Shown here piece after piece: positions 3,551-30,326 of a stretch of 42,982 bases of DNA (its first letter is position 1; every line of letters starts with the position of its first letter). The DNA comes from a virus. Both the position numbers and the translations under genes were made by a program. The notes beneath the pieces were generated by a model. That model was given only the letters and a program-made list of their open reading frames with translations. It was not told the origin of the DNA and searched no databases. The DNA lies in IMG/VR virus record IMGVR_UViG_3300018079_000018, positions 1 through 42,982 of that record, one strand, 5' to 3'.

Positions 3551-4495
3551 ATGGTCTGTATTTATTCTCTGCTGTTGTTGCTTGGGGCCCCATTGGATGA
3601 TCTGAAACTCATCAAGCCGCTTCCGGCGCCGACGTATTCATGGCCCATTCCGTCGGAGGTGCTCAAAGTCGATAACGCCGAGTTGGCCGAAATTACCAGG
3701 ATCACGGGCAGTATCGGCGTGTTTTTGGAGGCGAGAGCCGATCAACCGATCACAGCGTTAAAGATCGCAGCCGGCCACGGGGCGAAACTGGCGGTCATGT
3801 TCCGTCCGTGGTTCGAGCCCATCGTGAAAAACCCCCTGAGCAGCGAGGCGACGGGGGAATTTGGTTTGACCTGGCAACGATGGCGCGAAGGGACCGGGAG
3901 GGCGTTGGCGGCGTCGCCGTACAAACCCCCGATCGTCTGCCTTGTAGACGCGGAAACTTTCGACTGCCGCGCAGAACCAAACCGCAGCCGGTGCGCTGAG
4001 CTGTACGCCAGTTATGACGCTTTCATCCGTGCCGTGGCGGGCTGCAAGGAAGTGTTCTGGTATGGATTCGGGGAAGTCGCCGCGCCAGCGGAGCCCGGCG
4101 GGTATGCCTTCCAGCCTTGGGTGGCGCCGTTCGAGGGGATGAAGTCCGTCGGATGGGAAGCCTACAACGTCGGCGAGATCGCGGAGACGCGCGAAATGTC
4201 CCGCCGTGCCAAGGCGACGGCGGATTCTCTTGGTATCGGCGGGTCCGCATGGGTCAGTGTGGGCTGTGGTCAACGGTACAACTGGGAGCCGTTCAAGCAG
4301 TGGACCTGGAGCGGCGAGCAATCGTACAGCCGCGAGTTGGGCCGTGAGTTGTACGGAAAGTGGTATCGCGAAAGACCGTCGCGCTTCATGGTAGGACCCG
4401 GTGCGGTGATTTTCTATCCCTCGCTCTTGGACCTGCGGATGGTTGACCCCGAGTGGAAAAATCGGCTGGCTTTTCTGCGCGGAGCGACGGAATGA
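3551..4495 (+). CDS. Hypothetical, possibly secreted, TIM-barrel-like protein
   Basis: The protein has 314 residues; ATG 3551 is set by the Shine-Dalgarno AAGGAG at 3539-3544. A short hydrophobic start (IYSLLLLLGAP) could be a signal peptide or anchor. The body has features of a glycosidase-like barrel: many Trp residues, an acidic strand end in IVCLVDAETF near residue 133, and WYGFGEV near residue 171. A wall-degrading or surface sugar role is possible but unproven. It is flanked on both sides by heptamer hairpins, as if it were a separate cassette. Confidence 0.5.
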   Translation: MVCIYSLLLLLGAPLDDLKLIKPLPAPTYSWPIPSEVLKVDNAELAEITRITGSIGVFLEARADQPITALKIAAGHGAKLAVMFRPWFEPIVKNPLSSEATGEFGLTWQRWREGTGRALAASPYKPPIVCLVDAETFDCRAEPNRSRCAELYASYDAFIRAVAGCKEVFWYGFGEVAAPAEPGGYAFQPWVAPFEGMKSVGWEAYNVGEIAETREMSRRAKATADSLGIGGSAWVSVGCGQRYNWEPFKQWTWSGEQSYSRELGRELYGKWYRERPSRFMVGPGAVIFYPSLLDLRMVDPEWKNRLAFLRGATE

Positions 4496-7906: not shown

Positions 7907-8626
7907 GTGAGAGGAAAACGACGAAAACGAACCCTGGCACCAAAAGCGGCGAACGAGTCAACGAGTTCGGTGGTGGCTCAGATCGCCGGCGAACAGGACC
8001 GGTTGGCCTACATCGCGGTGATGCAGGACCGCCGCGAGGGGCGGGAATCGACGCAGACCAAACTGCGCGGCGCGGCGCGCTTCGAGAAGGCCCGCACCCT
8101 CCAGACGGCGTTGGCCTTCGTACGGGCGGTAGAACGCAAATGGCTCCGCGAATGGTCGGGGATGCAGGACAAACTGCTCAACGACTCCTGCGAGCGATAC
8201 GGGGTGCCGGTCAAGGGGCCGGTGTGGAGCGTGCCGGAGTTGGTGCACTGGGTGTTTCGGTTTTTGGCCAAGTACGGGCGGTACATCTTCCGCGCCCAGA
8301 TCAACGGTCAGGCCGTCGAGGAGGGGCCGGATTCTCCGTGGTTGGAGGAACTGCGCAAGGAGCGCACGCTCATGGAGCGGATCAAACGCCGGGAGCTGGA
8401 GCGATCGCTCATTTCCACGCACGTCGTGCGGCAGGCGTGGCAGATCGCGGGCGCCGCGATGCGGGTCGGGTGCGAGCAGATGAAGCGCGAACGGTGGGAC
8501 CGGGCGGTGGAGATCTATGACGAGGCCCTGGACAATGCGGAGCGCAAACTCGAACAGTTCTTCGCCGACTTTGATCCCGCCGGCGAAGACGAACCCGAAC
8601 AGCAAACACAGGAAGAGCCAGCCTGA
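7907..8626 (+). CDS. Candidate small terminase subunit
   Basis: The protein has 239 residues from GTG 7907. It is strongly helical, with WSVPELVHWVFRFLAKYGRYIF near residues 106-127, a long charged helix (ERTLMERIKRRELERSL) in the middle, and an acidic C-terminal tail. I recognise no definite family. The call of small terminase rests on its place two genes before the large subunit and on its helical, oligomer-like build. Its last codons run straight into the first unit of the 36-bp array. The acidic tail itself (EPEQQTQEEPA) is encoded by decayed, array-like DNA. Confidence 0.45.
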   Translation: MRGKRRKRTLAPKAANESTSSVVAQIAGEQDRLAYIAVMQDRREGRESTQTKLRGAARFEKARTLQTALAFVRAVERKWLREWSGMQDKLLNDSCERYGVPVKGPVWSVPELVHWVFRFLAKYGRYIFRAQINGQAVEEGPDSPWLEELRKERTLMERIKRRELERSLISTHVVRQAWQIAGAAMRVGCEQMKRERWDRAVEIYDEALDNAERKLEQFFADFDPAGEDEPEQQTQEEPA

Positions 8627-8629
8627 AAA

Positions 8630-8834
8630 TGAAACCCAGGCAAGATTTGCGAGCCAGCAAAAGGATGAAACCCAGGCAAAAGTTGCGAGCATTTGCCGAT
8701 TGAAACCCAACGGCGGACTACGAGCCAGACCGCTGGTGAAACCCAACAACAACCTGCGAGTCATGGTGTGCGTGAAACCCAACATACGGTTGCGAGCCAA
8801 GCACGGCGTGAAACCCACAATAGTCATGCGTTTT
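8630..8834. repeat. 36-bp double-motif array 1, upstream of the IS110-type gene
   Basis: Six copies of motif A, TGAAACCCA, start at 8630, 8666, 8701, 8737, 8773 and 8809. Five copies of motif B, TGCGAGCCA (with small changes), start at 8648, 8684, 8719, 8755 and 8791. A and B alternate and are separated by nine variable bases each, so the full period is 36. One unit is 35 bases because one base is missing at its B motif. A sixth B is truncated at 8827 and runs into TTTTTTT. The variable parts share no sequence. The missing base shifts the reading frame, so this is not a coding repeat. It ends four bases before the Shine-Dalgarno of the next gene. Confidence 0.95.
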
Positions 8835-8848
8835 TTTAGGAGAAAACA

Positions 8849-9715
8849 GTGATCGACGTGAAACAAAGAGAATATCTGAAGTTAGTGGTGCGGCGGATGT
8901 ACGACGCCCAGAAACTGCGCATCCAGAGCGATCTGCGCATGCAGCGGCTGATCCGCGATGAGATCGTCCTGGAGGCCGAGGCCGAGGCGATGCTGGGCAA
9001 GGCCCAGAAGCTGGAGGCGGCCACGGAAACGGAATACGAAAGGATCATCCGCGACCTGATCCGGGACATTCCGGTGTACGACCAGTGGCTGGCCGGGGTG
9101 CGGGGGGTCGGCGTGCGCCTCTCCGGGTTGTGCATCGGTTTGATCGGGGACATCGGAAAGTTCGCCAACGTATCGAAGTTGTGGGCCTACGCCGGTCTGC
9201 ACGTCATCGACGGCAAGGCGGCGCGGCGGACCAAGGGCGAGAAGGCCAATTGGTCGGATGAATTGAAGATGACCTGCTGGAAGATTTCCGGCTCCTTCGT
9301 GAAATGCGGCGGCAAGTATCGCACGCTGCTCTATGAACCTTACAAGCAATATCTCGTGGTCAGGGAACTGAAAAACGGCAACGTGATCTGGAAGGGCAGC
9401 GCCGCCGCGGGCGACGGCGAAGAGATGCCCGGCGTAGAGATCAAGCCGGGGAAATACAAACCGGCGTTCGTGCCCAAGGAACTGTTGGGAACGGAACTGG
9501 TCGCTCCGCCCAAGCCGGAATGGACGCTGGCGCGGGTCAACAACATGGCCATGCGGCGCATGGCGAAAATCTTCCTCGCTCACCTGTGGCACGTCTGGCG
9601 GGAGATCGAAGGATTGCCGACCGCAGGGCCCTACGCGATGGACCGGTTGGGGCACGCCAGTTACCTCGATCCGTGGAAGATGATGGAGGACAAGGCGGCG
9701 GAAGAGGCGGCGTAG
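8849..9715 (+). CDS. Stand-alone IS110/IS116-type (Transposase_20) helix-hairpin-helix protein
   Basis: The protein has 288 residues; GTG 8849 follows the Shine-Dalgarno AGGAG at 8838-8842. After a helical, charged start (about residues 1-75) comes the IS110 C-terminal signature near residues 80-170: VRGVGVRLSGLCIGLIGDIG, KFANVSKLWAYAGL, and SDELKMTCWKISGSFVKCGG. The N-terminal DEDD RuvC-like catalytic domain of IS110 enzymes is missing. The usual Ser-Gly of the second domain, which carries the nucleophile, is not evident (HVIDGKA at that place). So it is probably a DNA- or RNA-binding relative, not an active transposase. It is bracketed by two 36-bp arrays and lies between the candidate small terminase gene and the large terminase. 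Confidence 0.75.
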   Translation: MIDVKQREYLKLVVRRMYDAQKLRIQSDLRMQRLIRDEIVLEAEAEAMLGKAQKLEAATETEYERIIRDLIRDIPVYDQWLAGVRGVGVRLSGLCIGLIGDIGKFANVSKLWAYAGLHVIDGKAARRTKGEKANWSDELKMTCWKISGSFVKCGGKYRTLLYEPYKQYLVVRELKNGNVIWKGSAAAGDGEEMPGVEIKPGKYKPAFVPKELLGTELVAPPKPEWTLARVNNMAMRRMAKIFLAHLWHVWREIEGLPTAGPYAMDRLGHASYLDPWKMMEDKAAEEAA

Positions 9716-9727
9716 CCATGCTCAAAA

Positions 9728-10021
9728 TGGAACCCAGAGGAGTCTTGCGAGCCAGGCCGCGGGTGAAACCCAGAATTCGGCTGCGAGCCACGAACGACCT
9801 GAAACCCACGGCGCAGTGCGAGCCAATCGTGACTGAAACCCACCGTCGCCGTGCGAGCCACATACGCCCTGAAACCCACACTCGCCGTGCGAGCCAATTC
9901 CGCACTGAAACCCAAAGACGACGTGCGAGCCATGCCCTCGCTGAAACCCATAAACAGCGTGCGAGCCAATAGCGGTTTGAAACCCAGAAATTCAGTGCGA
10001 GCCGATCGTGACTGAAACCCT
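9728..10021. repeat. 36-bp double-motif array 2, downstream of the IS110-type gene
   Basis: Nine A motifs (TGAAACCCA; first TGGAACCCA, last TGAAACCCT) start at 9728, 9764, 9800, 9834, 9870, 9906, 9942, 9978 and 10013. Eight B motifs (TGCGAGCCA) start at 9746, 9782, 9817, 9852, 9888, 9924, 9960 and 9996. Most variable spacers are nine bases; three are eight. The motifs hardly vary while the spacers do, except that ATCGTGAC occurs twice (9826 and 10005). The array begins 13 bases after the 8849 gene and ends inside the first codons of the large terminase. Several frames are open across it on both strands, but the eight-base spacers break them. Confidence 0.95.
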
Positions 10022-12673: not shown

Positions 12674-13135
12674 TTGAATAAGGCTGAAGATCGTAGGCTG
12701 AAGGGCGTAGGACAGAAACCGGAGGCCGCCGGCGCCAACACCGGAACGCAGATCCTTCGCGGCACACAGGATGACAGGGGCGGCCCGGTGGGCGACGGCT
12801 CGAGCGGCAAACCGCCGGAAAAAAACACCGCTGACAAAGCAGTGGCACGCGGGACTGCTGACATATCACGGGCACATCCTACCGCGGATAAGGCGGCAGC
12901 GGGTGAATACAACGTCAACGGCACGCCGCGGACGTGGGTGACCATTCGCGTGCCGTTGGGACCCAACCTGGCGGGGGAACGGCCGACGGTGATCTGCGAC
13001 GTGCGCTACCGCGACGGCGGGCCGCAGGCGGTGGCCTTCAAGCGCATCAAGGCGGCCATCTGTCACTCACAGAACCAATCCGACCTGGAAGTCATCAAGT
13101 GGCTGCTGGGAGAGGTGGCGCGACAACTAGGCTGA
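12674..13135 (+). CDS. Hypothetical protein with a repeat-derived N-terminus
   Basis: The protein has 153 residues if it starts at TTG 12674. Residues 1-75 are low complexity and are encoded by a half heptamer element (12680-12713) and two small CACTG-type elements. The conserved-looking part begins near residue 78 (YNVNGTPRTWVTIRVPLGPN) and reads like a small beta-domain with a helical end. The true start may therefore lie further in, and the repeats may be leader DNA. No family is recognised. Confidence 0.45.
   Translation: MNKAEDRRLKGVGQKPEAAGANTGTQILRGTQDDRGGPVGDGSSGKPPEKNTADKAVARGTADISRAHPTADKAAAGEYNVNGTPRTWVTIRVPLGPNLAGERPTVICDVRYRDGGPQAVAFKRIKAAICHSQNQSDLEVIKWLLGEVARQLG
12680..12713. 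repeat. Heptamer element H8 (left arm only)
   Basis: Three degenerate units run as GGCTGAAGATCGTAGGCTGA. No right arm is present. It overlaps the predicted start of the 12674 gene. Confidence 0.6.
12828..12876. repeat. Small hairpin element, two copies in tandem
   Basis: Copy one is CCGCTGACAAAGCAGTGGCA at 12828-12847, with a six-pair stem CCGCTG/CAGTGG. Copy two, at 12855-12876, is degenerate (CTGCTGACATATCACGGGCA). Related copies lie at 14218, 18446, 18887 and 25868. Confidence 0.6.
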
Positions 13136-13195
13136 GAACTGAAGGCTGTAGGCTGTAGACTATAGGCCGTAGGCTGAAGGCTGTAGGCCGCAGGA
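13128..13195. repeat. Heptamer element H9 (left-arm units only)
   Basis: About nine units of GGCTGTA/GGCCGTA/GGCTGAA type run from just before the stop of the 12674 gene to the ParB-like gene. There is no right arm, so it cannot fold like the other elements. Confidence 0.75.
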
Positions 13196-20030: not shown

Positions 20031-20600
20031 ATGCAAATCGCCATTCTATGCCCGGGGCCTTCGCTGGCGCGGCACGAGGCCGATGCGTGGAAGGCTTACG
20101 ACCTGACCATCGCGGTCAATCGGGCGGCGAGCGCTCATCCTTGTGATTGGTGGGTGTTCGGAGATGCCGAAGGCTTTCGACAGACGATGCCCAAGGGTCA
20201 TCCGAAAGTCTTTACCACAAAACAGTCATGGGCGGAGGTCAACCGCGGCGGGCTCGGAGGGGGTTGGTGGGCGCGGTTTTTTGAGGAAATGCACACCGAC
20301 ATCGTCCTGGAAACCAATTGGCGACGGCATTCCATGACCGCGGCGATGGTCCTGGGGTACCACTTGTTCGGCCTGAATCCAAGGAATCACGACGACTCGG
20401 GAGGCGCGATCGACATCTTCGGCTGCGATTGGGCAGTCGAAGCGGATTATTTCGACGGCGGAAAGGACACCATCGGCCATCACTCCAATCGTTTCGACCG
20501 TGAACGGCACGCTTATGGGCGGATCGTGGACCGCATCGCGAGCAAGGGAATCGAGGTCCGCCGGGCGAAGTTTGATTATGCCGGAATGGGGAACGAATGA
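20031..20600 (+). CDS. DUF115-like / putative sugar-transfer related protein
   Basis: The protein has 189 residues from ATG 20031, with AAGGAGGAAAGAGG before it. The start AILCPGPSLARHEADAW, followed by DLTIAVNRAASAHPCDWWVFGD, is the pattern of the phage and bacterial DUF115 group (a Rossmann-like fold tied to glycosylation). AIDIFGCDWAVEADYFDG closes the domain. It may modify virion or host surface sugars. Its place inside the head genes hints at capsid or tail glycosylation, which is inference. Confidence 0.6.
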   Translation: MQIAILCPGPSLARHEADAWKAYDLTIAVNRAASAHPCDWWVFGDAEGFRQTMPKGHPKVFTTKQSWAEVNRGGLGGGWWARFFEEMHTDIVLETNWRRHSMTAAMVLGYHLFGLNPRNHDDSGGAIDIFGCDWAVEADYFDGGKDTIGHHSNRFDRERHAYGRIVDRIASKGIEVRRAKFDYAGMGNE

Positions 20601-20746: not shown

Positions 20747-21130
20747 ATGCCCAGCAAATTCGATGAGATTTTCGGCGTCATGGCTGAGCCGGCGTTGCTG
20801 GATCAGATGGGCGAGGCGGCCACGTATCGGCCGGCGGCGGGCGGGACCGCCGCGGTGATCGCCATGGTTGGCGCGGAGGAGGCGGTGGACCGTACGGAGA
20901 CGGACGGCGATCGAAACATCGAACGGGTCCGGCCGGTGACGATCTCCACGGACCCGGCCGGCGCTTACGGCGGGGTGGCCAATCCCGGGGCCAACGACCA
21001 GATCGACGTGGGGGGCGTCACCTATGAGGTGCGATCTGTGACCAACAAAAGCGGGAATCTGGTCACTATGGAGTGCGTACGGCTGGGATCGATTGAAAAG
21101 GCCAGGCCGGGGTATCGAGGACGAAGGTAA
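20747..21130 (+). CDS. Head-tail joining protein, lambda gpFII-like
   Basis: The protein has 127 residues from ATG 20747. KFDEIFGVMAEPALLDQMGEAATYRPAAG at the start and IDVGGVTYEVRSVTNKSGNL at the end give the small beta-barrel pattern of the gpFII attachment protein. It should sit between the head connector and the tail terminator. The place after the coat gene agrees. Confidence 0.65.
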   Translation: MPSKFDEIFGVMAEPALLDQMGEAATYRPAAGGTAAVIAMVGAEEAVDRTETDGDRNIERVRPVTISTDPAGAYGGVANPGANDQIDVGGVTYEVRSVTNKSGNLVTMECVRLGSIEKARPGYRGRR

Positions 21131-21137
21131 CGCACGA

Positions 21138-21494
21138 ATGGGCAACGACAACGGGAGTGTCGCACTCACGCGGCTGGTGTGGTGGGCGATCGGGATCGGG
21201 GCCATCGTCGTTGTCGGAGCAGGGGCCTTTTTCGCCGCGATGACGATTCAAGGAATGAAGGATGACATCAATGGCCTTAGTGCATCCAAGGAACTCCACA
21301 GCGAGCGAATGAGCCTCCTCGAAGGGCGGATTTCGACGCTCGAAAACACGAGTTCGGCGTCCGTGCAAGCGATCAAGGAAAGTTTAGCGAAGATGGAGAC
21401 GTGGCAGGATCAGGTTCGGCAGGACATCGCAGACTTGAAGGCCAGGGCCACCGGGGAGTGGCGACCTAAGCCGGTGACGAAATCGGAACCGTGA
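21138..21494 (+). CDS. Membrane protein with coiled coil
   Basis: The protein has 118 residues from ATG 21138 (an earlier ATG at 21093 overlaps the joining gene). One transmembrane helix lies near residues 10-35 (VWWAIGIGAIVVVGAGAFFAAM), then a heptad-rich coiled coil (MSLLEGRISTLENTSSASVQ) and a basic proline-containing tail. The topology resembles an inner-membrane spanin or holin-associated protein. It is the first of the embedded membrane/secreted block. Confidence 0.55.
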   Translation: MGNDNGSVALTRLVWWAIGIGAIVVVGAGAFFAAMTIQGMKDDINGLSASKELHSERMSLLEGRISTLENTSSASVQAIKESLAKMETWQDQVRQDIADLKARATGEWRPKPVTKSEP

Positions 21495-21511
21495 TGCCCT
21501 TCGCCTTCGTC

Positions 21512-21589
21512 TTAGGCTGTAGACTGAAGGTCATAGACTGTGGGTGCGAGTTCCTACGGCCTATAGCCTACGAGCCTACAGCCTACAGC
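21512..21589. repeat. Heptamer hairpin element H15
   Basis: The left arm is GGCTGTAGACTGAAGG, the loop GGGTGCGAGTTCC, and the right arm has TACGGCCTATAGCCTACGAG and two more units. It lies between the 21138 and 21628 genes. Confidence 0.8.
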
Positions 21590-21627
21590 GTGGACCTGCG
21601 TGACGTGGCGACATTGACCGTGGCGCG

Positions 21628-22176
21628 ATGAAAGTAATCTTGTACGACAGTTCCCCCAACGGTGCCGTAGGCTGGTCGTGGGCCATTGGTTCGTTCCGTC
21701 CCGGCTGGACGCGCATCGGGGCGAAGTCGTGGGATGAAGCGGCGGAGGCGATAGGCTCGGCCATCTTCGAGGCCACAAGCAAATTGAATGGAATCGCCAA
21801 GCTCGCCACGCTCCAAATTTGGGGCCACGGACAACCGGGCGAGCCATTGCTCGCGGGGAAGCCCATGACACCGGCGTTCATGCGGCGCGTGCAAGTAGGC
21901 GTATCGCCGACCAGCCTTGTCTGGTTTCGCATGTGCAGCGTCTTTTTCGGAGCCAAGGGTCAAGCCTTCGCGGAGCGCACGGCGAATGAGTTGAATTGTC
22001 GGACCGCGGGGCACAGTCATGTCATCGGCCCGTGGCAGAGCGGACTCTATTCCTTGAAGCCCGGTCAAACGCCGTCATGGGACGTGGGCAACGGCGTCTG
22101 GCGAAGCGTCAAAAGCGGATGGCGAAAGCAGAGGACGGTGTTCTGTACCAACATGAGCTTTCCAGATGGCTGGTGA
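21628..22176 (+). CDS. Caspase/CHAT-like His-Cys protein (putative peptidase)
   Basis: The protein has 182 residues from ATG 21628. LQIWGHGQPGEPLL places His67 after a hydrophobic strand, and LVWFRMCSVFFG places Cys103 at the end of the next strand. A helix (AKGQAFAERTANELN) and then TAGHSHVIGP follow. This order, strand-His-Gly then strand-Cys, is that of the caspase/CHAT/DUF4347 fold. Catalytic function is inferred from the dyad alone. In this membrane-gene block it might serve in lysis or host interference. No signal peptide is visible. Confidence 0.5.
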   Translation: MKVILYDSSPNGAVGWSWAIGSFRPGWTRIGAKSWDEAAEAIGSAIFEATSKLNGIAKLATLQIWGHGQPGEPLLAGKPMTPAFMRRVQVGVSPTSLVWFRMCSVFFGAKGQAFAERTANELNCRTAGHSHVIGPWQSGLYSLKPGQTPSWDVGNGVWRSVKSGWRKQRTVFCTNMSFPDGW

Positions 22177-22402
22177 GGAGAACGGACAATCGACTATCAA
22201 GATCCCCACGGCGTGGCTGGGGCCGATCGCCAAGTGGGTGGTGTTGACGTTGCTGGGCGCGAATCTGTGGCAGACGACGACTTCAAAAACGGAGTTGGCC
22301 CGCGAACAGGCGGCTTGGGATACGGAGACGGCGGCCAAGGTTTTTAAGAAACTGGCATCGCTTGAGGATTTGCTGGCGGCAAGGGAGTCGGAAACGAGAT
22401 GA
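22166..22402 (+). CDS. Small single-pass membrane protein
   Basis: The protein has 78 residues from ATG 22166, overlapping the previous gene. One membrane helix lies near residues 14-31 (WLGPIAKWVVLTLLGANLW), followed by a charged helix (ELAREQAAWDTETAAKVFKK). The pattern suits a holin, antiholin or inner spanin. The next frame starts at ATGA over its stop. Confidence 0.5.
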   Translation: MAGEENGQSTIKIPTAWLGPIAKWVVLTLLGANLWQTTTSKTELAREQAAWDTETAAKVFKKLASLEDLLAARESETR

Positions 22403-22506
22403 TCCACTGGCCGGTGAGGCAATTGGTTTGGTTTAGGTTTAGTGAAATCGGCCCCTGTTCGATTTGGCGTATCAACAATGAACTTGGTCCTTACTGGGCG
22501 TGCTAA
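22399..22506 (+). CDS. Possible 35-residue peptide
   Basis: An ATG overlaps the previous stop and opens 35 codons rich in Trp and Phe. It may be a coupled small peptide or chance. The following 34 bases hold only the leader of the next gene. Confidence 0.25.
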   Translation: MIHWPVRQLVWFRFSEIGPCSIWRINNELGPYWAC

Positions 22507-22540
22507 TTGACCCCGGCTCAGCCGGAGATTGGAGTCTAGG

Positions 22541-22696
22541 ATGGGCGTTTTGTTTAATCAGTTGTTGGAGTCGGTGTGGGGATTCATAGCGAGCTTCCTC
22601 AACGGACTGGTGGTTGACGTGCTGACCCAACTTCTCGGAGTCTCGGTTTCTTTGGTCGTGGCCTGCTTAATACTGTCGGCGCTTGTCGGGGCTTGA
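22541..22696 (+). CDS. Small hydrophobic membrane protein, possible holin
   Basis: The protein has 51 residues from ATG 22541, with GGAG at 22531-22534. Almost the whole chain is hydrophobic (FIASFLNGLVVDVLTQLLGV; SLVVACLILSALVG), enough for one or two membrane passes. Its size and place beside a Pro-rich lipoprotein suggest a holin or other lysis peptide. No family is recognised. Confidence 0.45.
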   Translation: MGVLFNQLLESVWGFIASFLNGLVVDVLTQLLGVSVSLVVACLILSALVGA

Positions 22697-22785
22697 CGTG
22701 CCCGGCGTGGCTGACAGTTGGTGGTTGGATCAAAAAGGAAAAGGCAATCCGTACTATTACGGACAATGCCGGAAAGGTTGGCGAT

Positions 22786-23109
22786 ATGAGACAGCAAAAA
22801 TTCACTGCGAAGAGCGCGTTGTGGCTGACGATTGCGGGCGGGATCGTATTCATCGCGGGCTGCCTGGCGAACACGGGCTGTGTGGCCGAGGGAGATTGGA
22901 AGTACACCCTCACGACGCCCGTGGGTGATTGGTCGATCGCCGGCGACGCGACCCCGCCAAAACCGGAAGACAAAGCGACGGTGCTCACCTTCGACAATTG
23001 GTTCAAGAAATGGTGGGAGGCGTTGACCGAGATTTGGACCGCCGATCCGCCGCCTCCCCCCGCCGCGGCGACGACTACGATCACCGCGCCGCCGAAGAAA
23101 CCCGAGTAA
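22786..23109 (+). CDS. Lipoprotein with proline-rich tail, possible outer spanin
   Basis: The protein has 107 residues from ATG 22786; the frame opens further back at TTG 22693, but the lipoprotein signal fits the ATG. Residues 1-30 have a basic start, a hydrophobic core and lipobox-like Cys (IVFIAGC, ANTGC). The C-terminus is proline-rich (WTADPPPPPAAA). Small Pro-rich lipoproteins next to small membrane proteins are typical of Rz1-type spanins. The stop overlaps the next ATG. Confidence 0.55.
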   Translation: MRQQKFTAKSALWLTIAGGIVFIAGCLANTGCVAEGDWKYTLTTPVGDWSIAGDATPPKPEDKATVLTFDNWFKKWWEALTEIWTADPPPPPAAATTTITAPPKKPE

Positions 23110-23636
23110 TGAAAGTCCTGGTCACAGTCTGGCTCCTACTTTTCCTTCGGGGAGGAGGAATCGGGGACGATGTGGGTCGGGAAGTCGATTTCAAGTTTGA
23201 ATCGCTTCCCCTCGGCGCCAGTCCGCGCGCGGAATGGACGGTGCAAGGCGTCCGAATCGCGGCCATGGGCGTCGGCGGTGATCTGCAAGTCAAAACGCGG
23301 GACGAACTCAGCCCGCCGGACTTCGGCGACCGGTTTCTCACCATCGAAGACACGAAGGCCTCGCATCTTCGTTTGATGTTTTTTCCACCCATCGCCGGCT
23401 TCGATTATCTGGCGACGATGGACCGGATGGGAGAACAACCCGCCATGCGGGCGTATCTTTTCATCGGTGGAGATTACACTTTTCGATACCCGACTGCGGA
23501 TTTCGGGCCTCGTGTCAATGAACGGATTTTGAAGCCTGGGGAACTCTGGGGCGATTCATATTTCTATAAACCCACGGTGATTTACGCGATTGATTTGAAG
23601 GGGACGCGGTTGGGCATGATTCGGATTACGCCCTAA
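23109..23636 (+). CDS. Secreted hypothetical protein
   Basis: The protein has 175 residues from ATG 23109, overlapping the previous stop by one base. A signal peptide (MKVLVTVWLLLFLRGGG) leads into a beta-rich domain (FKFESLPLGASPRAEWTVQG; AYLFIGGDYTFRYPTADFGP; VIYAIDLKGTRLGMIRI). No family is recognised. It may act at the host envelope. Confidence 0.5.
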   Translation: MKVLVTVWLLLFLRGGGIGDDVGREVDFKFESLPLGASPRAEWTVQGVRIAAMGVGGDLQVKTRDELSPPDFGDRFLTIEDTKASHLRLMFFPPIAGFDYLATMDRMGEQPAMRAYLFIGGDYTFRYPTADFGPRVNERILKPGELWGDSYFYKPTVIYAIDLKGTRLGMIRITP

Positions 23637-23702
23637 TGCAAAGTGGACGGGAAGCCGCGGATGGCGGGCGGGACCGATGTCACCGGCTTCTTTTCCCTCT
23701 CC

Positions 23703-23740
23703 GGAGCGCCGCCGCCCACGACCCGATGCGGCGGCGCTCC
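23703..23740. terminator. Strong GC hairpin, possible terminator
   Basis: Perfect 13-base arms GGAGCGCCGCCGC and GCGGCGGCGCTCC enclose a 12-base loop, 67 bases after the previous stop. No T-run follows (ACTTTGCTCG), so it is not a classic intrinsic terminator. It may stall or protect transcripts. It is the only element of this sequence that I see in the window. Confidence 0.4.
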
Positions 23741-23781
23741 ACTTTGCTCGAATAGGCGGTCTGCGGGCTTGATGAAATGAA

Positions 23782-23991
23782 ATGGAAAATAGCCGCCCGG
23801 CGGTAATAAGCGAGTGGAACCGTTCGGAAAATACCTATGGGTGTGATTGCCCGAAGTGCGGAACGTGGCTGAAAGTGTCCGCCCGGCACGTAGATGAGAA
23901 AGGAATCACGGTCCGCGAGCTGATCTGCACCAATCGCCGATGCGATTGGCATGGACGGATTCATTTTGTGAACGCGAGGAGGAACGGATGA
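23782..23991 (+). CDS. Small zinc-ribbon protein
   Basis: The protein has 69 residues from ATG 23782. Two Cys pairs, CDCPKCG near residue 21 and CTNRRC near residue 49, form a four-Cys zinc ribbon. Such proteins often bind nucleic acid or partner proteins. The stop overlaps the ATG at 23988. Confidence 0.55.
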   Translation: MENSRPAVISEWNRSENTYGCDCPKCGTWLKVSARHVDEKGITVRELICTNRRCDWHGRIHFVNARRNG

Positions 23992-24434
23992 AGGCGCAAG
24001 TGCTGCGGAGTTTATGGTTAGGATTAGGCTGCACGTTGATGCAATGTGCCCTGTGGTGGTGTTCTGGGTGCGGGGTGGGGCCGGGGTATCTGTTGAGCGG
24101 CCTGGTGATCGAAGACTTCCTGGACCAACGTTCACGCCCCGACGATGGGATCGACTGTTTCGATCTGAACGCAAACGCAGAATGCGATGAGGACGAAGAC
24201 GTCAATGGGGATGGTGTCTGCGACGCCTTGGATTGCCGAGGGACTGATGGAACCGATGGGAACGCCGGCGAGTCCGGAGCGCAAGGGGTTCCCGGCATAC
24301 CCGGCCCCCAAGGCGAACCCGGCGAGACGACAGTCATCATCGTAGACGATGACGACGAGGATGAAGACGGAGCAGGTGCCCCGCCGTTCGGTCATGCCTA
24401 CGGTCATGATCAACCGCCGGGGGGGAAGCCGTGA
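23988..24434 (+). CDS. Lipoprotein with calcium-site and collagen-like segments
   Basis: The protein has 148 residues from ATG 23988 with Shine-Dalgarno GAGGAGG. The hydrophobic start carries several Cys (LGLGCTLMQCALWWCSGC), so it is probably a lipoprotein. Residues about 55-85 are Asp-rich (CDEDEDVNGDGVCDALDC), like thrombospondin type 3 or dockerin calcium loops. Residues about 87-112 are Gly-X-Y collagen-like (GVPGIPGPQGEPGE). An acidic DDDDEDEDG patch and a His/Gly-rich end follow. The function is unknown; surface display on the host or virion attachment is possible. Confidence 0.55.
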   Translation: MKAQVLRSLWLGLGCTLMQCALWWCSGCGVGPGYLLSGLVIEDFLDQRSRPDDGIDCFDLNANAECDEDEDVNGDGVCDALDCRGTDGTDGNAGESGAQGVPGIPGPQGEPGETTVIIVDDDDEDEDGAGAPPFGHAYGHDQPPGGKP

Positions 24435-24829
24435 CGAGTAGACTTGTCGTCGTCTGGCTGCTCGTCGCGTCATTGTTCGTCTTCGAGATGGGCTGCGGGA
24501 CTCTTCTGCGCTTGTTTTCGTCCGATCGAGAGCAGAACGTGGAGTCGGATCAAAAACCAGGCGCCGAGGCCTCGGGTGGATCGAGCATTTGGCAATTCAA
24601 CTTCCAAAACGTAGCGGGCAAGGGGGGATGGGCCCTATTGCCGTTTATTCTTGGCGCGTGGTTCGTGAGGAGCCGCCGTCTCCGCGGCGGGTTGGACACG
24701 GTCATTGAGTCGATTCGGGAGAAACAGTGCGAAGATTGCAAACGGTGCGTCGAATCCCGAAACAACGCCCTGGTCAACAAGCGCGTCCGGGTGTTGAAGA
24801 AGAAATGGAAAGTTGAAGCATGCCGCTGA
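24431..24829 (+). CDS. Lipoprotein/membrane protein of unknown function
   Basis: The protein has 132 residues from GTG 24431, overlapping the previous stop. A signal sequence with lipobox VFEMGC is followed by a variable region, a second hydrophobic stretch (GGWALLPFILGAWFV) and a basic tail with CEDCKRC. It closes the embedded membrane/secreted block; its end overlaps the first tail gene. Confidence 0.5.
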   Translation: MTSRLVVVWLLVASLFVFEMGCGTLLRLFSSDREQNVESDQKPGAEASGGSSIWQFNFQNVAGKGGWALLPFILGAWFVRSRRLRGGLDTVIESIREKQCEDCKRCVESRNNALVNKRVRVLKKKWKVEACR

Positions 24830-25341
24830 GCGCACCGCAAGGTTCGATCTCCAAGGCGGTGGACAATCTGCGGGTGACGCTCGCTGATTCCACGACTTTC
24901 CGAACTTGGGTCGGGGCGGTTGATCAAGCCACGGCCCTGGTCAAAATCAATTACGAAAGCCTTCCGCCGCCGGCGGACAAAAACGAGCACACCCTCGCCG
25001 AATTGACCGCCTATCGGCCCTACGCATTGCTTTGGACGTCGCCGGAAAACGGGTTCCGGTTGAGTCATTTCGACAACGAATCCGGGGTGATGATGCTTCG
25101 GTTTGTGCAAACGGTGGAGATCATCATCGCCGACGACGCCGCTGAAATCGCCCGACGTTTCTTGAACACCCTGGGGGCGATATTCGATGAGATCATGGCC
25201 CTTAATCGAGTGGGCGGCTATCTGGCGACGGAAGCGATCGAATTGGAGTCCGGCCCCTTTCGCGCCGATGCGGATGAGGCCGCTGCGCAAGGCGATTACA
25301 TCTTCGCGGACGCGAAGTTGACTTGGGGGGTCGCGGAGTGA
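24820..25341 (+). CDS. Putative tail terminator / head-tail adaptor
   Basis: The protein has 173 residues from ATG 24820. The start ISKAVDNLRVTLADSTTFRTWVG and later YRPYALLWTSPENGF follow the shape of small alpha/beta tail-terminator proteins that cap the tail before head joining. Evidence is mainly position: it follows the joining protein and precedes tail completion and major tail genes. Confidence 0.45.
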   Translation: MPLSAPQGSISKAVDNLRVTLADSTTFRTWVGAVDQATALVKINYESLPPPADKNEHTLAELTAYRPYALLWTSPENGFRLSHFDNESGVMMLRFVQTVEIIIADDAAEIARRFLNTLGAIFDEIMALNRVGGYLATEAIELESGPFRADADEAAAQGDYIFADAKLTWGVAE

Positions 25342-26849: not shown

Positions 26850-26956
26850 GTTATGGGCTTTAGACCATAGGCTATAGGCCGAGGAACTAGGCTATAGGCT
26901 GTAGACCGTAGGAAGAAACCAGCACCTACAGCCTTCAGCCTACAGCCTACAGCCTA
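26850..26956. repeat. Heptamer hairpin element H16 (longest)
   Basis: An extra run of degenerate units (GGGCTTTAGACCATAGGCTA) precedes a complete element with left arm GGCTATAGGCTGTAGACCGT, loop GGAAGAAACCAGCACC, and right arm of four CTACAGC-type units. It may be two elements fused. Confidence 0.85.
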
Positions 26957-26962
26957 ATTCGT

Positions 26963-27718
26963 ATGAGCGGTTTTTTGTATTTCGTTTCAGGTATGGTGGA
27001 CCCGCCGGAGATCGATCGGCTGCGGTCCATGGGTCTGGGTCATGCCTTCGATCGTCCTCCAGCCTACCGGGCGATCAGCGGGCCGGGACCATCCGGCCGA
27101 CCAGGACTGTTGATGGGCGTGCACGCTTGGGCGAACGGGGAATCCATCGGCTATTATCCGGATCGGCAGACGTGGCGGTGCAACGTTGCAACGCCCGATC
27201 GCTGCAACGACGAAGTGTGGACCGGGCTGTGGAACGAACGCCGCCCGCGAGGCGAGGAATTGTTGCGCCGTGACGCCTTGAACGGCCATCGGGTGCGCCT
27301 CGGCGACGGGGCGGAATGGTTGATCCCCGTGGCCCGGAAGTTGGTGCAACAAAATGGGGAGACGCGTTTCTATAATGCTCTTCCGCACGCGATGGACCTG
27401 GACGGGGACGGGAGATGGACGCAGCGTCGCATCGTCGACGAATACGTCCGACTTTGGTTGATCGCCGCACGTTTCTGGGACGTGTATGTTGCGGCGGCGG
27501 ATGAAGAGAACGCGACCGATCGTCCGTCGATGAGCGATGAGGAGATTTATGTTGCCGCGACGGACGCCCTGACGGTCAATTACCATGTATCGGCGCATGA
27601 GGTGGCGATGCTGGGATTGTTGATCGACGTCCGGGCGGGGGAAATCCTCAAGGCGGTCATCGACGTTCCGGCGCTCCATGAATGGAGCAAAAAAAAAGCC
27701 GCCGCAGCGCCGACGTGA
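26963..27718 (+). CDS. Putative tail assembly chaperone, gpG-like
   Basis: The protein has 251 residues from ATG 26963. The N-terminal part is mixed, and the C-terminal half is helical (AHEVAMLGLLIDVRAGEILK). No family motif is plain. The call rests on place, between major tail and tape measure, and on the slippery run of nine A at 27689-27697 near its end, which can shift ribosomes by -1 into the 27715 frame, as in lambda G-GT. Confidence 0.55.
   Translation: MSGFLYFVSGMVDPPEIDRLRSMGLGHAFDRPPAYRAISGPGPSGRPGLLMGVHAWANGESIGYYPDRQTWRCNVATPDRCNDEVWTGLWNERRPRGEELLRRDALNGHRVRLGDGAEWLIPVARKLVQQNGETRFYNALPHAMDLDGDGRWTQRRIVDEYVRLWLIAARFWDVYVAAADEENATDRPSMSDEEIYVAATDALTVNYHVSAHEVAMLGLLIDVRAGEILKAVIDVPALHEWSKKKAAAAPT
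27689..27697 (+). promoter_or_regulatory. Probable -1 programmed frameshift site
   Basis: Nine A in frame as AAA AAA AAA follow AGC. Slipping back one base leads into AGC CGC CGC AGC GCC GAC GTG AGC, the same frame as the 27715-27840 ORF. The fused product would gain about 47 residues. No downstream pseudoknot was worked out. Confidence 0.55.
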
Positions 27719-29686: not shown

Positions 29687-29743
29687 GCTGAAGACTAGGC
29701 TGTAGACTGTAGACTGTAGGCTGTAGGCCGTAGGGTGTAGGCG
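29685..29743. repeat. Heptamer element H18 (left-arm units only)
   Basis: About eight units (GGCTGTAGACTGTAGACTGT and more) run from the previous stop to the next ATG. No right arm is seen. Confidence 0.8.
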
Positions 29744-29744
29744 C

Positions 29745-30326
29745 ATGGCGATCACGAGCACGATGACAACGCGGATCGGACAAATCACTTTGGTGATCGT
29801 GACCAGTGGTCTGACACCGCCGGTGTACTTTCATTGGTATCTCGACGGGGCCTACATGGGTATGACCGGCGAGGGAAGTTTTTCCTTAGCCCTGAAGGAA
29901 GATGAGCAGGCGCGCGTCGAAGTGATTGACACCACGGACCCGGCGTTCGATCCGCTGGCCGCGCCGCCGGCATTCTTCCCGGCGCGGTTTACGATTCATT
30001 GGGTCCGAAGTCTGGCGACCGATGCGGCCGAATATCGCATCGAAGAGACCAACGACGGAGGAGCGTGGACGGCGGTGGGACGAGTGCCGCACGATGACGA
30101 AGTGTGGGATTATCGATTTCTCAGCGATCGATTGGTTGATTTGACGCTCTACGGCTGGCGCGTAGTTCCCGTCGACCGCGCTGGCAATGACGGCACACCG
30201 CTGGTTATCGGGGCGGTGGAAGTGTATTGGAATTATCTCCAAACGGTGGTGCGATCGCCTGATGCGCCGCGATGGAATTTTGCATGGAGTCCGGGAACAC
30301 AGCGGGTTACCTTCGCCGCCGCCTGA
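29745..30326 (+). CDS. Minor tail protein with fibronectin-III-like strands
   Basis: The protein has 193 residues from ATG 29745. PPVYFHWYLDGAYMGMTGEG and AEYRIEETNDGGAWTAVGRV read like two Ig/FN3-type beta sandwiches, the usual decoration domains of tail proteins. It probably takes part in host contact or tail-tip structure. The family call is by pattern only. Confidence 0.5.
   Translation: MAITSTMTTRIGQITLVIVTSGLTPPVYFHWYLDGAYMGMTGEGSFSLALKEDEQARVEVIDTTDPAFDPLAAPPAFFPARFTIHWVRSLATDAAEYRIEETNDGGAWTAVGRVPHDDEVWDYRFLSDRLVDLTLYGWRVVPVDRAGNDGTPLVIGAVEVYWNYLQTVVRSPDAPRWNFAWSPGTQRVTFAAA

What the first reader, a model, noticed from the sequence alone, without database searches (positions are those of the whole stretch)
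21138..24829. Membrane and secreted gene block between head and tail modules
Seen: at least seven short genes with membrane helices, signal peptides or lipoboxes (21138, 22166, 22541, 22786, 23109, 23988, 24431) plus a caspase-like and a zinc-ribbon gene, placed between the head-tail joining and tail terminator genes, with ATGA overlaps. No standard endolysin is recognised anywhere, so a new type of lysis system for the planctomycete envelope may be here.
Basis: partly seen in the sequence, partly recalled or inferred. Interest (0 to 1): 0.55.

Follow-up and report, generated by a model that had tools for sequence, protein, structure and literature searches.

The report
Likely phage lysis cassette, caspase-like enzyme
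Between its head and tail genes this phage, a relative of phages found integrated in planctomycete bacteria, carries a cluster of small membrane and secreted proteins plus a caspase-like enzyme; several related phages carry membrane genes beside trypsin- or papain-like proteases, and no ordinary lysis enzyme was found in this phage, so the cluster may be an unusual way to break open the host cell.

Summary
The block is real: nine ORFs (21138-24829) each score best in their own frame, and 4 of 9 pass an N-terminal hydrophobicity test against 1 of 40 other plus-strand genes. It lies between a Phage_attach gene and tail genes. In 17 of 19 relatives with the attachment gene identified the gap is 363 nt or less; a hydrophobic ORF lies in 7 of 7 gaps over 200 nt, window included, but an opposite-strand one lies in 4 of these 7. 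The caspase-like gene (21628-22176) is a divergent DUF4347 relative: its phage homologue passes the cut-off, the window protein does not. A planctomycete protein joins DUF4347 to a peptidoglycan-binding domain. Pfam found no endolysin among 61 window ORFs. Several relatives carry membrane genes beside trypsin-like or papain-like hydrolases; others do not. Best reading: a lysis cassette with a non-canonical peptidase, at 0.45. Nothing here measures lysis. Rivals: surface or exclusion genes, a toxin-type moron, release without lysis.

The parts
20747..21130 (+). head-tail attachment gene, left border of the block
   Evidence: PF05354 E 4.3e-7 over cut-off; same place in relatives
21138..21494 (+). 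118 aa, one N-terminal transmembrane segment then coiled-coil-like tail (by eye); holin- or i-spanin-like candidate
   Evidence: hydrophobic segment 2.51, 0.002 of shuffles; weak PHROG hits, best phrog_33341 E 5.6e-6 (unknown function), Rz-like spanin phrog_739 E 0.004; short membrane ORFs at the same junction in some relatives
21628..22176 (+). 182 aa caspase-like putative cysteine peptidase, divergent DUF4347 relative, no hydrophobic N-terminus; conserved H67-G68 and C103
   Evidence: L048 homologue 39 percent identical over the alignment passes the DUF4347 cut-off, window 10 bits E 0.015 below it; homologues in 5 of 392 genomes of the planctomycete phylum plus one weak frame-broken match
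22166..22402 (+). 78 aa, weak single hydrophobic segment plus charged tail
   Evidence: hydrophobicity 1.59, 0.09 of shuffles; frame score 16.4, best of six
22541..22696 (+). 51 aa, hydrophobic throughout; small membrane protein, weakest gene call
   Evidence: hydrophobicity 2.93 but 0.31 of shuffles as high; frame score only 1.6
22786..23109 (+). 107 aa putative lipoprotein with proline-rich C-terminus; o-spanin-like by anatomy only
   Evidence: signal segment and IAGC lipobox
23109..23636 (+). 175 aa putative secreted protein, no family
   Evidence: signal-like N-terminus 1.96, 0.06 of shuffles; frame score 30.6, best of six; no Pfam, PHROG or NCBIfam hit
23782..23991 (+). 69 aa, CxxC pairs, possible zinc ribbon
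   Evidence: Ogr_Delta E 0.025 below cut-off
23988..24434 (+). 148 aa putative lipoprotein with collagen-like repeats and acidic tail
   Evidence: PF01391 E 1.7e-5, 25 bits against cut-off 27.2; G403 24266-24814, a collagen-like lipoprotein at the same junction, matched at 31 percent against the small window set only, not
24431..24829 (+). 132 aa, hydrophobic N-terminus with MGC motif and a second hydrophobic stretch by eye; spanin- or holin-like candidate
   Evidence: hydrophobicity 2.99, 0 of 1000 shuffles
24820..25341 (+). putative tail terminator, right border of the block
   Evidence: homologues at this place in relatives; no Pfam hit

Best explanation
The block is an envelope-attack cassette, most likely the lysis module. 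Shown: a caspase-like DUF4347 relative sits among small membrane proteins and putative lipoproteins; no endolysin family was found in the window; several related phages have membrane genes beside a hydrolase. Inferred: the cytoplasmic caspase-like enzyme builds up and is released when the small membrane proteins (21138, 22166, 22541, perhaps 24431) open the inner membrane; it then cuts peptide bonds in or near the peptidoglycan layer or in envelope proteins; the lipoproteins (22786, 23988, 24431) act at the outer membrane as spanins would.
For: Block in frame and enriched in hydrophobic N-termini. No endolysin family in 61 window ORFs; SLT and M15_3 0 of 15 records. A same-strand hydrophobic ORF lies in the junction of 8 of 25 distinct phages, window included, and in 7 of 7 with an identified attachment gene and a gap over 200 nt. 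Trypsin_2 passes its cut-off in the phage contig of G001 and in G394, G395 and G401 (4 of 16 handles) and is the most frequent family of one scan (5 of 143 sequences); membrane genes stand near these genes. G395 also has a Peptidase_C1 protein over cut-off; G404 and G408 have papain-like proteins (Q, C and NSWG shared). One membrane protein family stands beside YiiX/C39-like genes (names by eye) in L071 and G399 and beside trypsin-like genes in L121 and G401: similar cassette, different enzyme. A planctomycete protein fuses PG_binding_1 (E 7.3e-12) to DUF4347.
Against: No experiment. The window protein itself is below the DUF4347 cut-off, and no portal relative among the 80 loci has this gene. 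Its phage homologue in L048 has no membrane gene beside it that I could see. In the planctomycete sample 24 of 33 DUF4347 places lie in open frames over 600 aa, unlike this small gene; a peptidoglycan-binding fusion was seen at 2 loci only, one by Pfam, the other by eye and by a model built from the two; another homologue is the tip of an Rhs-type protein. The fold prediction failed (pLDDT 36), and a profile search of solved structures returned only glycosyltransferases, E 0.004, over part of the protein. No hydrolase was recognised in G397, G398, G403 and the G183, G050 and G391 prophages, and G396 and G407 were poorly covered. The place of the cassettes varies (before the terminase, after the capsid gene, or here). 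Opposite-strand hydrophobic ORFs occur in 4 of 25 gaps, all among the 7 with a same-strand one; of 5 phages without an identified attachment gene 1 has a same-strand one.
Confidence: 0.45

Rival explanations
1. Surface-modifying or superinfection-exclusion genes (morons) inserted at a permissive junction. The membrane proteins and lipoproteins change the envelope of the lysogen, and lysis is done by unrecognised genes.
For: The phage has an integrase family hit, so is probably temperate. In 17 of 19 relatives with the attachment gene identified the gap is 363 nt or less. A collagen-like lipoprotein and an Rhs-linked homologue suggest surface biology.
Against: Several relatives keep membrane plus hydrolase genes together on the strand of the late genes, and no other lysis genes were recognised in the window.
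Confidence: 0.27
2. The caspase-like protein is a toxin- or conflict-type peptidase taken from the host; its neighbours are unrelated membrane genes.
For: The G070 homologue is the C-terminal tip of an Rhs-type protein. PMC3482391 (passages and section 11 read) describes caspase-like domains as processing peptidases and as toxin tips. PMC8262886 (one passage read) names a DUF4347 protein as a putative T6SS effector.
Against: In G126 the homologue is a separate gene (the G141 copy is cut by a contig end), and DUF4347 is also joined to a peptidoglycan-binding domain.
Confidence: 0.18
3. The phage leaves the host without lysis and the block serves envelope passage or budding.
For: PMC10945688 (passages read) reports a planctomycete phage released without killing the host. 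No endolysin family was found in the window nor among the families shown for relatives (capped lists).
Against: That phage is small (21.9 kb) and extrachromosomal by its own report; kinship to this tailed phage was not tested here.
Confidence: 0.1

Closest known systems
Canonical holin-endolysin-spanin lysis cassette of tailed phages
   Same: cluster of small same-strand genes with single-pass membrane proteins, putative lipoproteins and one putative hydrolase
   Different: no muramidase, amidase or endopeptidase family found; hydrolase is DUF4347-like here and trypsin- or papain-like in several relatives; holin and spanin roles only by anatomy
DUF4347 (PF14252)
   Same: conserved HG and C positions, and a phage homologue over the family cut-off
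   Different: window protein scores 10 bits against a cut-off of 24.6; small separate gene without hydrophobic N-terminus, while 24 of 33 planctomycete DUF4347 places lie in open frames over 600 aa
Tox-Caspase and caspase-like processing peptidases of polymorphic toxins (PMC3482391)
   Same: a homologue forms the tip of an Rhs-type protein
   Different: here a free-standing phage gene among membrane genes; no secretion or immunity partner identified

Membership tests
DUF4347 (PF14252) | score over the curated cut-off of 24.6 bits | tested here: not met
   window 10 bits, E 0.015; no hit by hmmscan at E 10
DUF4347 (PF14252) | close homologue that is a member | tested here: met
   L048 24.9 bits, 39 percent identical to the window protein; G070 47.9 bits
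DUF4347 (PF14252) | conserved His-Gly and Cys at corresponding positions | tested here: met
   H67, G68 and C103 invariant in the four-sequence alignment; their catalytic role is recalled for caspase-like enzymes, not tested
caspase-like (clan CD) fold | predicted or solved fold match | tested here: inconclusive
   AlphaFold2 with two sequences pLDDT 36; PDB profile search gave only glycosyltransferases at E 0.004
holin-endolysin-spanin lysis cassette | recognised peptidoglycan hydrolase | tested here: not met
   61 window ORFs by Pfam; SLT and M15_3 absent
holin-endolysin-spanin lysis cassette | recognised holin family | tested here: not met
   only weak hits for 21138 (XhlA E 0.096 below cut-off; spanin PHROG E 0.004)
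holin-endolysin-spanin lysis cassette | same-strand cluster of single-pass membrane protein(s), lipoprotein(s) and hydrolase | tested here: inconclusive
   membrane segments and one lipobox by computation, two by eye; hydrolase activity and late expression not tested
holin-endolysin-spanin lysis cassette | causes cell lysis | not testable with these tools
   needs expression in a host

The most novel reading that the evidence does not exclude
A large group of siphophages of planctomycetes lyses its hosts with exchangeable proteases (secreted trypsin-like, papain-like, C39-like, here caspase-like) and small membrane proteins instead of peptidoglycan-degrading endolysins: a protease-based lysis system fitted to the planctomycete envelope.
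Probability: 0.25. Interest if true: 0.85.

Novelty: new variant of a known kind. Interest (0 to 1): 0.6.

Why it matters
[quoted passage not shown] the word planctomycete does not occur in its main text. My library searches (only the top listings seen) brought up one paper on how a planctomycete phage is released, PMC10945688. If the cassettes lyse, they would show that the lytic enzyme can be a general protease, would give genetic handles on the planctomycete envelope, and would allow annotation of lysis genes in phages where current models find none.

Tried and rejected
Endolysin elsewhere in the window: Pfam on 61 ORFs gave none. The one other gene that passes the hydrophobic N-terminus test, 3551-4495, has no family, PDB, cultured-phage or viral-contig relative and homologues in 3 of 343 genomes of the phylum; it stays a possible lytic enzyme.

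Block as a conserved cassette: rejected. Against 81 viral loci and L002, 8 of 9 block genes had no BLASTP match at E 1e-3 and the ninth, 21628, only L048, which had been fetched with it; the wider set gave the same. A match of 23988 to G403 appears only against the small window set (listing cut).

Structure of 21628: two-sequence AlphaFold model unusable, so no fold search was run. The PDB profile search gave glycosyltransferases at E 0.004, taken as chance because only part of the protein matches; not proved.

Papain- or calpain-like reading of cassette proteins in G405 and G400: no Pfam or PDB support, by eye only. YiiX-, C39- and alpha/beta-hydrolase-like readings in L071, G399, G001, L003 and G354 are by eye; Pfam gave nothing of use, and the YiiX-like protein of G399 hit phrog_1128 (E 2.4e-13), whose name does not match.

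Limits of the scans of relatives. Gene calling failed on G396 (antisense ORFs preferred), so its genes were not in the family scans. The first scan (133 sequences) took 131 of the 162 genes listed for seven phages plus two added; the second (143) took 139 of the 158 listed for seven phages and four prophages plus four added. All ten rows of G391 and nine others were dropped before it. The outputs list only 25 of 53, 25 of 54 and (PHROGs) 25 of 97 families, so weaker endolysin hits cannot be excluded. Which members gave Trypsin_2 is not shown.

Papers: PMC12596118, PMC10945688, PMC3482391, PMC4432640 and PMC8262886 by passages, with section 11 of PMC3482391; all others only in search listings.
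Full report
What the window is. The 42,982-base window is a whole IMG/VR virus record, linear, and I found no end repeat. Pfam finds terminase GpA, lambda-type portal, S49 protease, cement protein, integrase, HerA-like and RuvC-like genes, so it is a tailed and probably temperate phage.

The observation. Block 21138-24829 holds nine same-strand ORFs, each scoring best in its own frame. Four of 9 (21138, 22786, 23109, 24431) pass an N-terminal hydrophobicity test against 1 of 40 other plus-strand genes (Fisher p 0.003); 22541 is hydrophobic throughout, 22166 and 23988 are weak. Overlapping starts are visible. The block lies between a Phage_attach gene and the tail genes.

Relatives and host. 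A MAG contig (G001 C44, 43,018 bases) shares terminase, portal, protease and capsid genes at 35-43 percent identity in the same order. Its attachment gene is followed 93 nt later by a 175-aa gene of the tail terminator's size without a match, and then by the 25338 homologue. A portal profile found 134 confirmed viral stretches, of which 80 were kept, and matches at E 1e-10 or better in 24 of 392 genomes of the phylum of G002, whose record is titled Planctomycetaceae bacterium. Five that I fetched lie in contigs of 6-8 Mb, so they look integrated; their ends were not mapped. The window's host is inferred from this, not shown.

The junction. Among 25 distinct phages with capsid and tail-terminator genes found, 19 relatives have the attachment gene identified; the gap is 363 nt or less in 17 of them and 934 and 1043 nt in G403 and G396, against 3690 in the window. 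A same-strand hydrophobic ORF lies in the gap in 8 of 25, window included. With an identified attachment gene and a gap above 200 nt it is 7 of 7, including the G354 prophage; of 5 phages without that gene identified it is 1. An opposite-strand hydrophobic ORF lies in 4 of 25, all among the 7. G399 and L084 have a short membrane-like ORF there which the automatic test missed (G399 by eye). G403 has a collagen-like lipoprotein in this gap, as the window has at 23988, but sequence similarity is weak (only).

The caspase-like gene. Pfam, PHROGs, NCBIfam and the cultured phages gave no match. Homologues exist in 5 of 392 genomes of the phylum, with one further weak, frame-broken match, and in one viral contig, L048, which is not a portal relative. 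DUF4347 covers the L048 homologue (24.9 bits, cut-off 24.6) and G070 (47.9), but not the window protein (10 bits). H67, G68 and C103 are invariant among four sequences. In G070 the domain is the tip of an Rhs-type protein; in G126 it is a separate gene. One planctomycete protein (L178, genome G141) joins PG_binding_1 (E 7.3e-12) to DUF4347 over its cut-off. L177 (genome G126) looks the same, judged by eye and by a model built from the two; no other DUF4347 locus held matched that model, though loci reach only about 1.5 kb to each side. In the phylum sample 26 of 392 genomes have DUF4347 at E 1e-5, 24 of 33 places in open frames over 600 aa. In L048 I saw no membrane genes beside the homologue.

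No canonical endolysin found. None in 61 distinct window ORFs. Amidase_2 0 of 15 records (14 portal relatives and the L048 contig); SLT and M15_3 0 of 15 records including the window. In 133 and 143 proteins of relatives none of the families shown is an endolysin, but only 25 of 53 and 25 of 54 families are shown.

What relatives carry instead. Trypsin_2 passes its cut-off in the phage contig of G001 and in G394, G395 and G401 (4 of 16 handles) and is the most frequent family of the second scan (5 of 143). Related proteins are in L102 and G402 by BLAST, in L121 by a local model and in the G154 prophage by eye; G402, L102 and G154 were used to build that model. Two of these proteins, from G394 and L102, found no match in 50,697 phage records by tblastn at E 1e-3. 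G395 also has a Peptidase_C1 protein (E 1.5e-7, over cut-off) and two short membrane genes close by. G404 and G408 have papain-like proteins sharing Q, C and NSWG with it (G408 below cut-off). L071 and G399 share a cassette: C39-like, signal-anchored and membrane protein match by BLAST, their YiiX-like genes do not match each other (names by eye). Homologues of the membrane protein stand beside trypsin-like genes in L121 and G401. L003 has an alpha/beta-hydrolase-like gene followed by a lipoprotein that reads as a CAP domain; CAP is listed for one member of that scan. G354 has an alpha/beta-hydrolase-like gene and a lipoprotein, by eye. No hydrolase was recognised near membrane genes in G397, G398, G403 and the G183, G050 and G391 prophages; G396 and G407 were poorly covered; G400 and G405 have only by-eye candidates without support.

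Reading. The cluster has the anatomy of a lysis module, and in several related phages the hydrolase among the membrane genes is a peptidase. I take the window's block as such a module with a DUF4347-like enzyme, at 0.45. Planctomycetes do have peptidoglycan, sensitive to lysozyme (PMC4432640, passages read), so cleavage of its peptides is possible; cleavage of envelope proteins is the bolder option. Results against: variable place, hydrolase not recognised in several relatives, no copy of this enzyme in the portal relatives, Rhs and long-protein contexts of DUF4347, failed fold, and a report of non-lytic release of a planctomycete phage (PMC10945688, passages read).

Prior print. Searches for planctomycete phage lysis, DUF4347 and protease lysis cassettes showed no listing that describes such a cassette. 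I saw titles and starts of abstracts of the top rows only, and subscription papers and most preprints are outside the library.

Noticed in passing
window, for example 2506-2575, 13126-13195, 26853-26963, 29695-29749: Dispersed repeats with a 7-base rhythm (GGCTGTAG and CCTACAGC arms), 21 copies in one family, many between genes but also inside the terminase gene.
   Followed up: partly
window 8615-8830 and 9713-10011: Imperfect 36-base periodic arrays (TGAAACCCA and TGCGAGCCA alternating) on both sides of ORF 8849-9715, which reads by eye like the C-terminal part of an IS110-type transposase.
   Followed up: no
window 3551-4495: Putative secreted 314 aa protein of unknown family in the early region, with homologues in 3 of 343 genomes of the planctomycete phylum; a possible alternative lytic enzyme.
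   Followed up: partly
window 20031-20600: 189 aa gene between capsid and attachment genes with one viral homologue found (L096, 27 percent); glycosyltransferase-like by eye.
   Followed up: no
L003 3483-3935: Lipoprotein that reads as a CAP domain, next to an alpha/beta-hydrolase-like gene and upstream of the terminase in a planctomycete MAG contig.
   Followed up: partly
L178 1366-2337 and L177 1354-2550, minus strand: Planctomycete proteins joining a peptidoglycan-binding domain to DUF4347 (L177 not tested by Pfam), a fusion that may hint at the function of this uncharacterised domain.
   Followed up: partly
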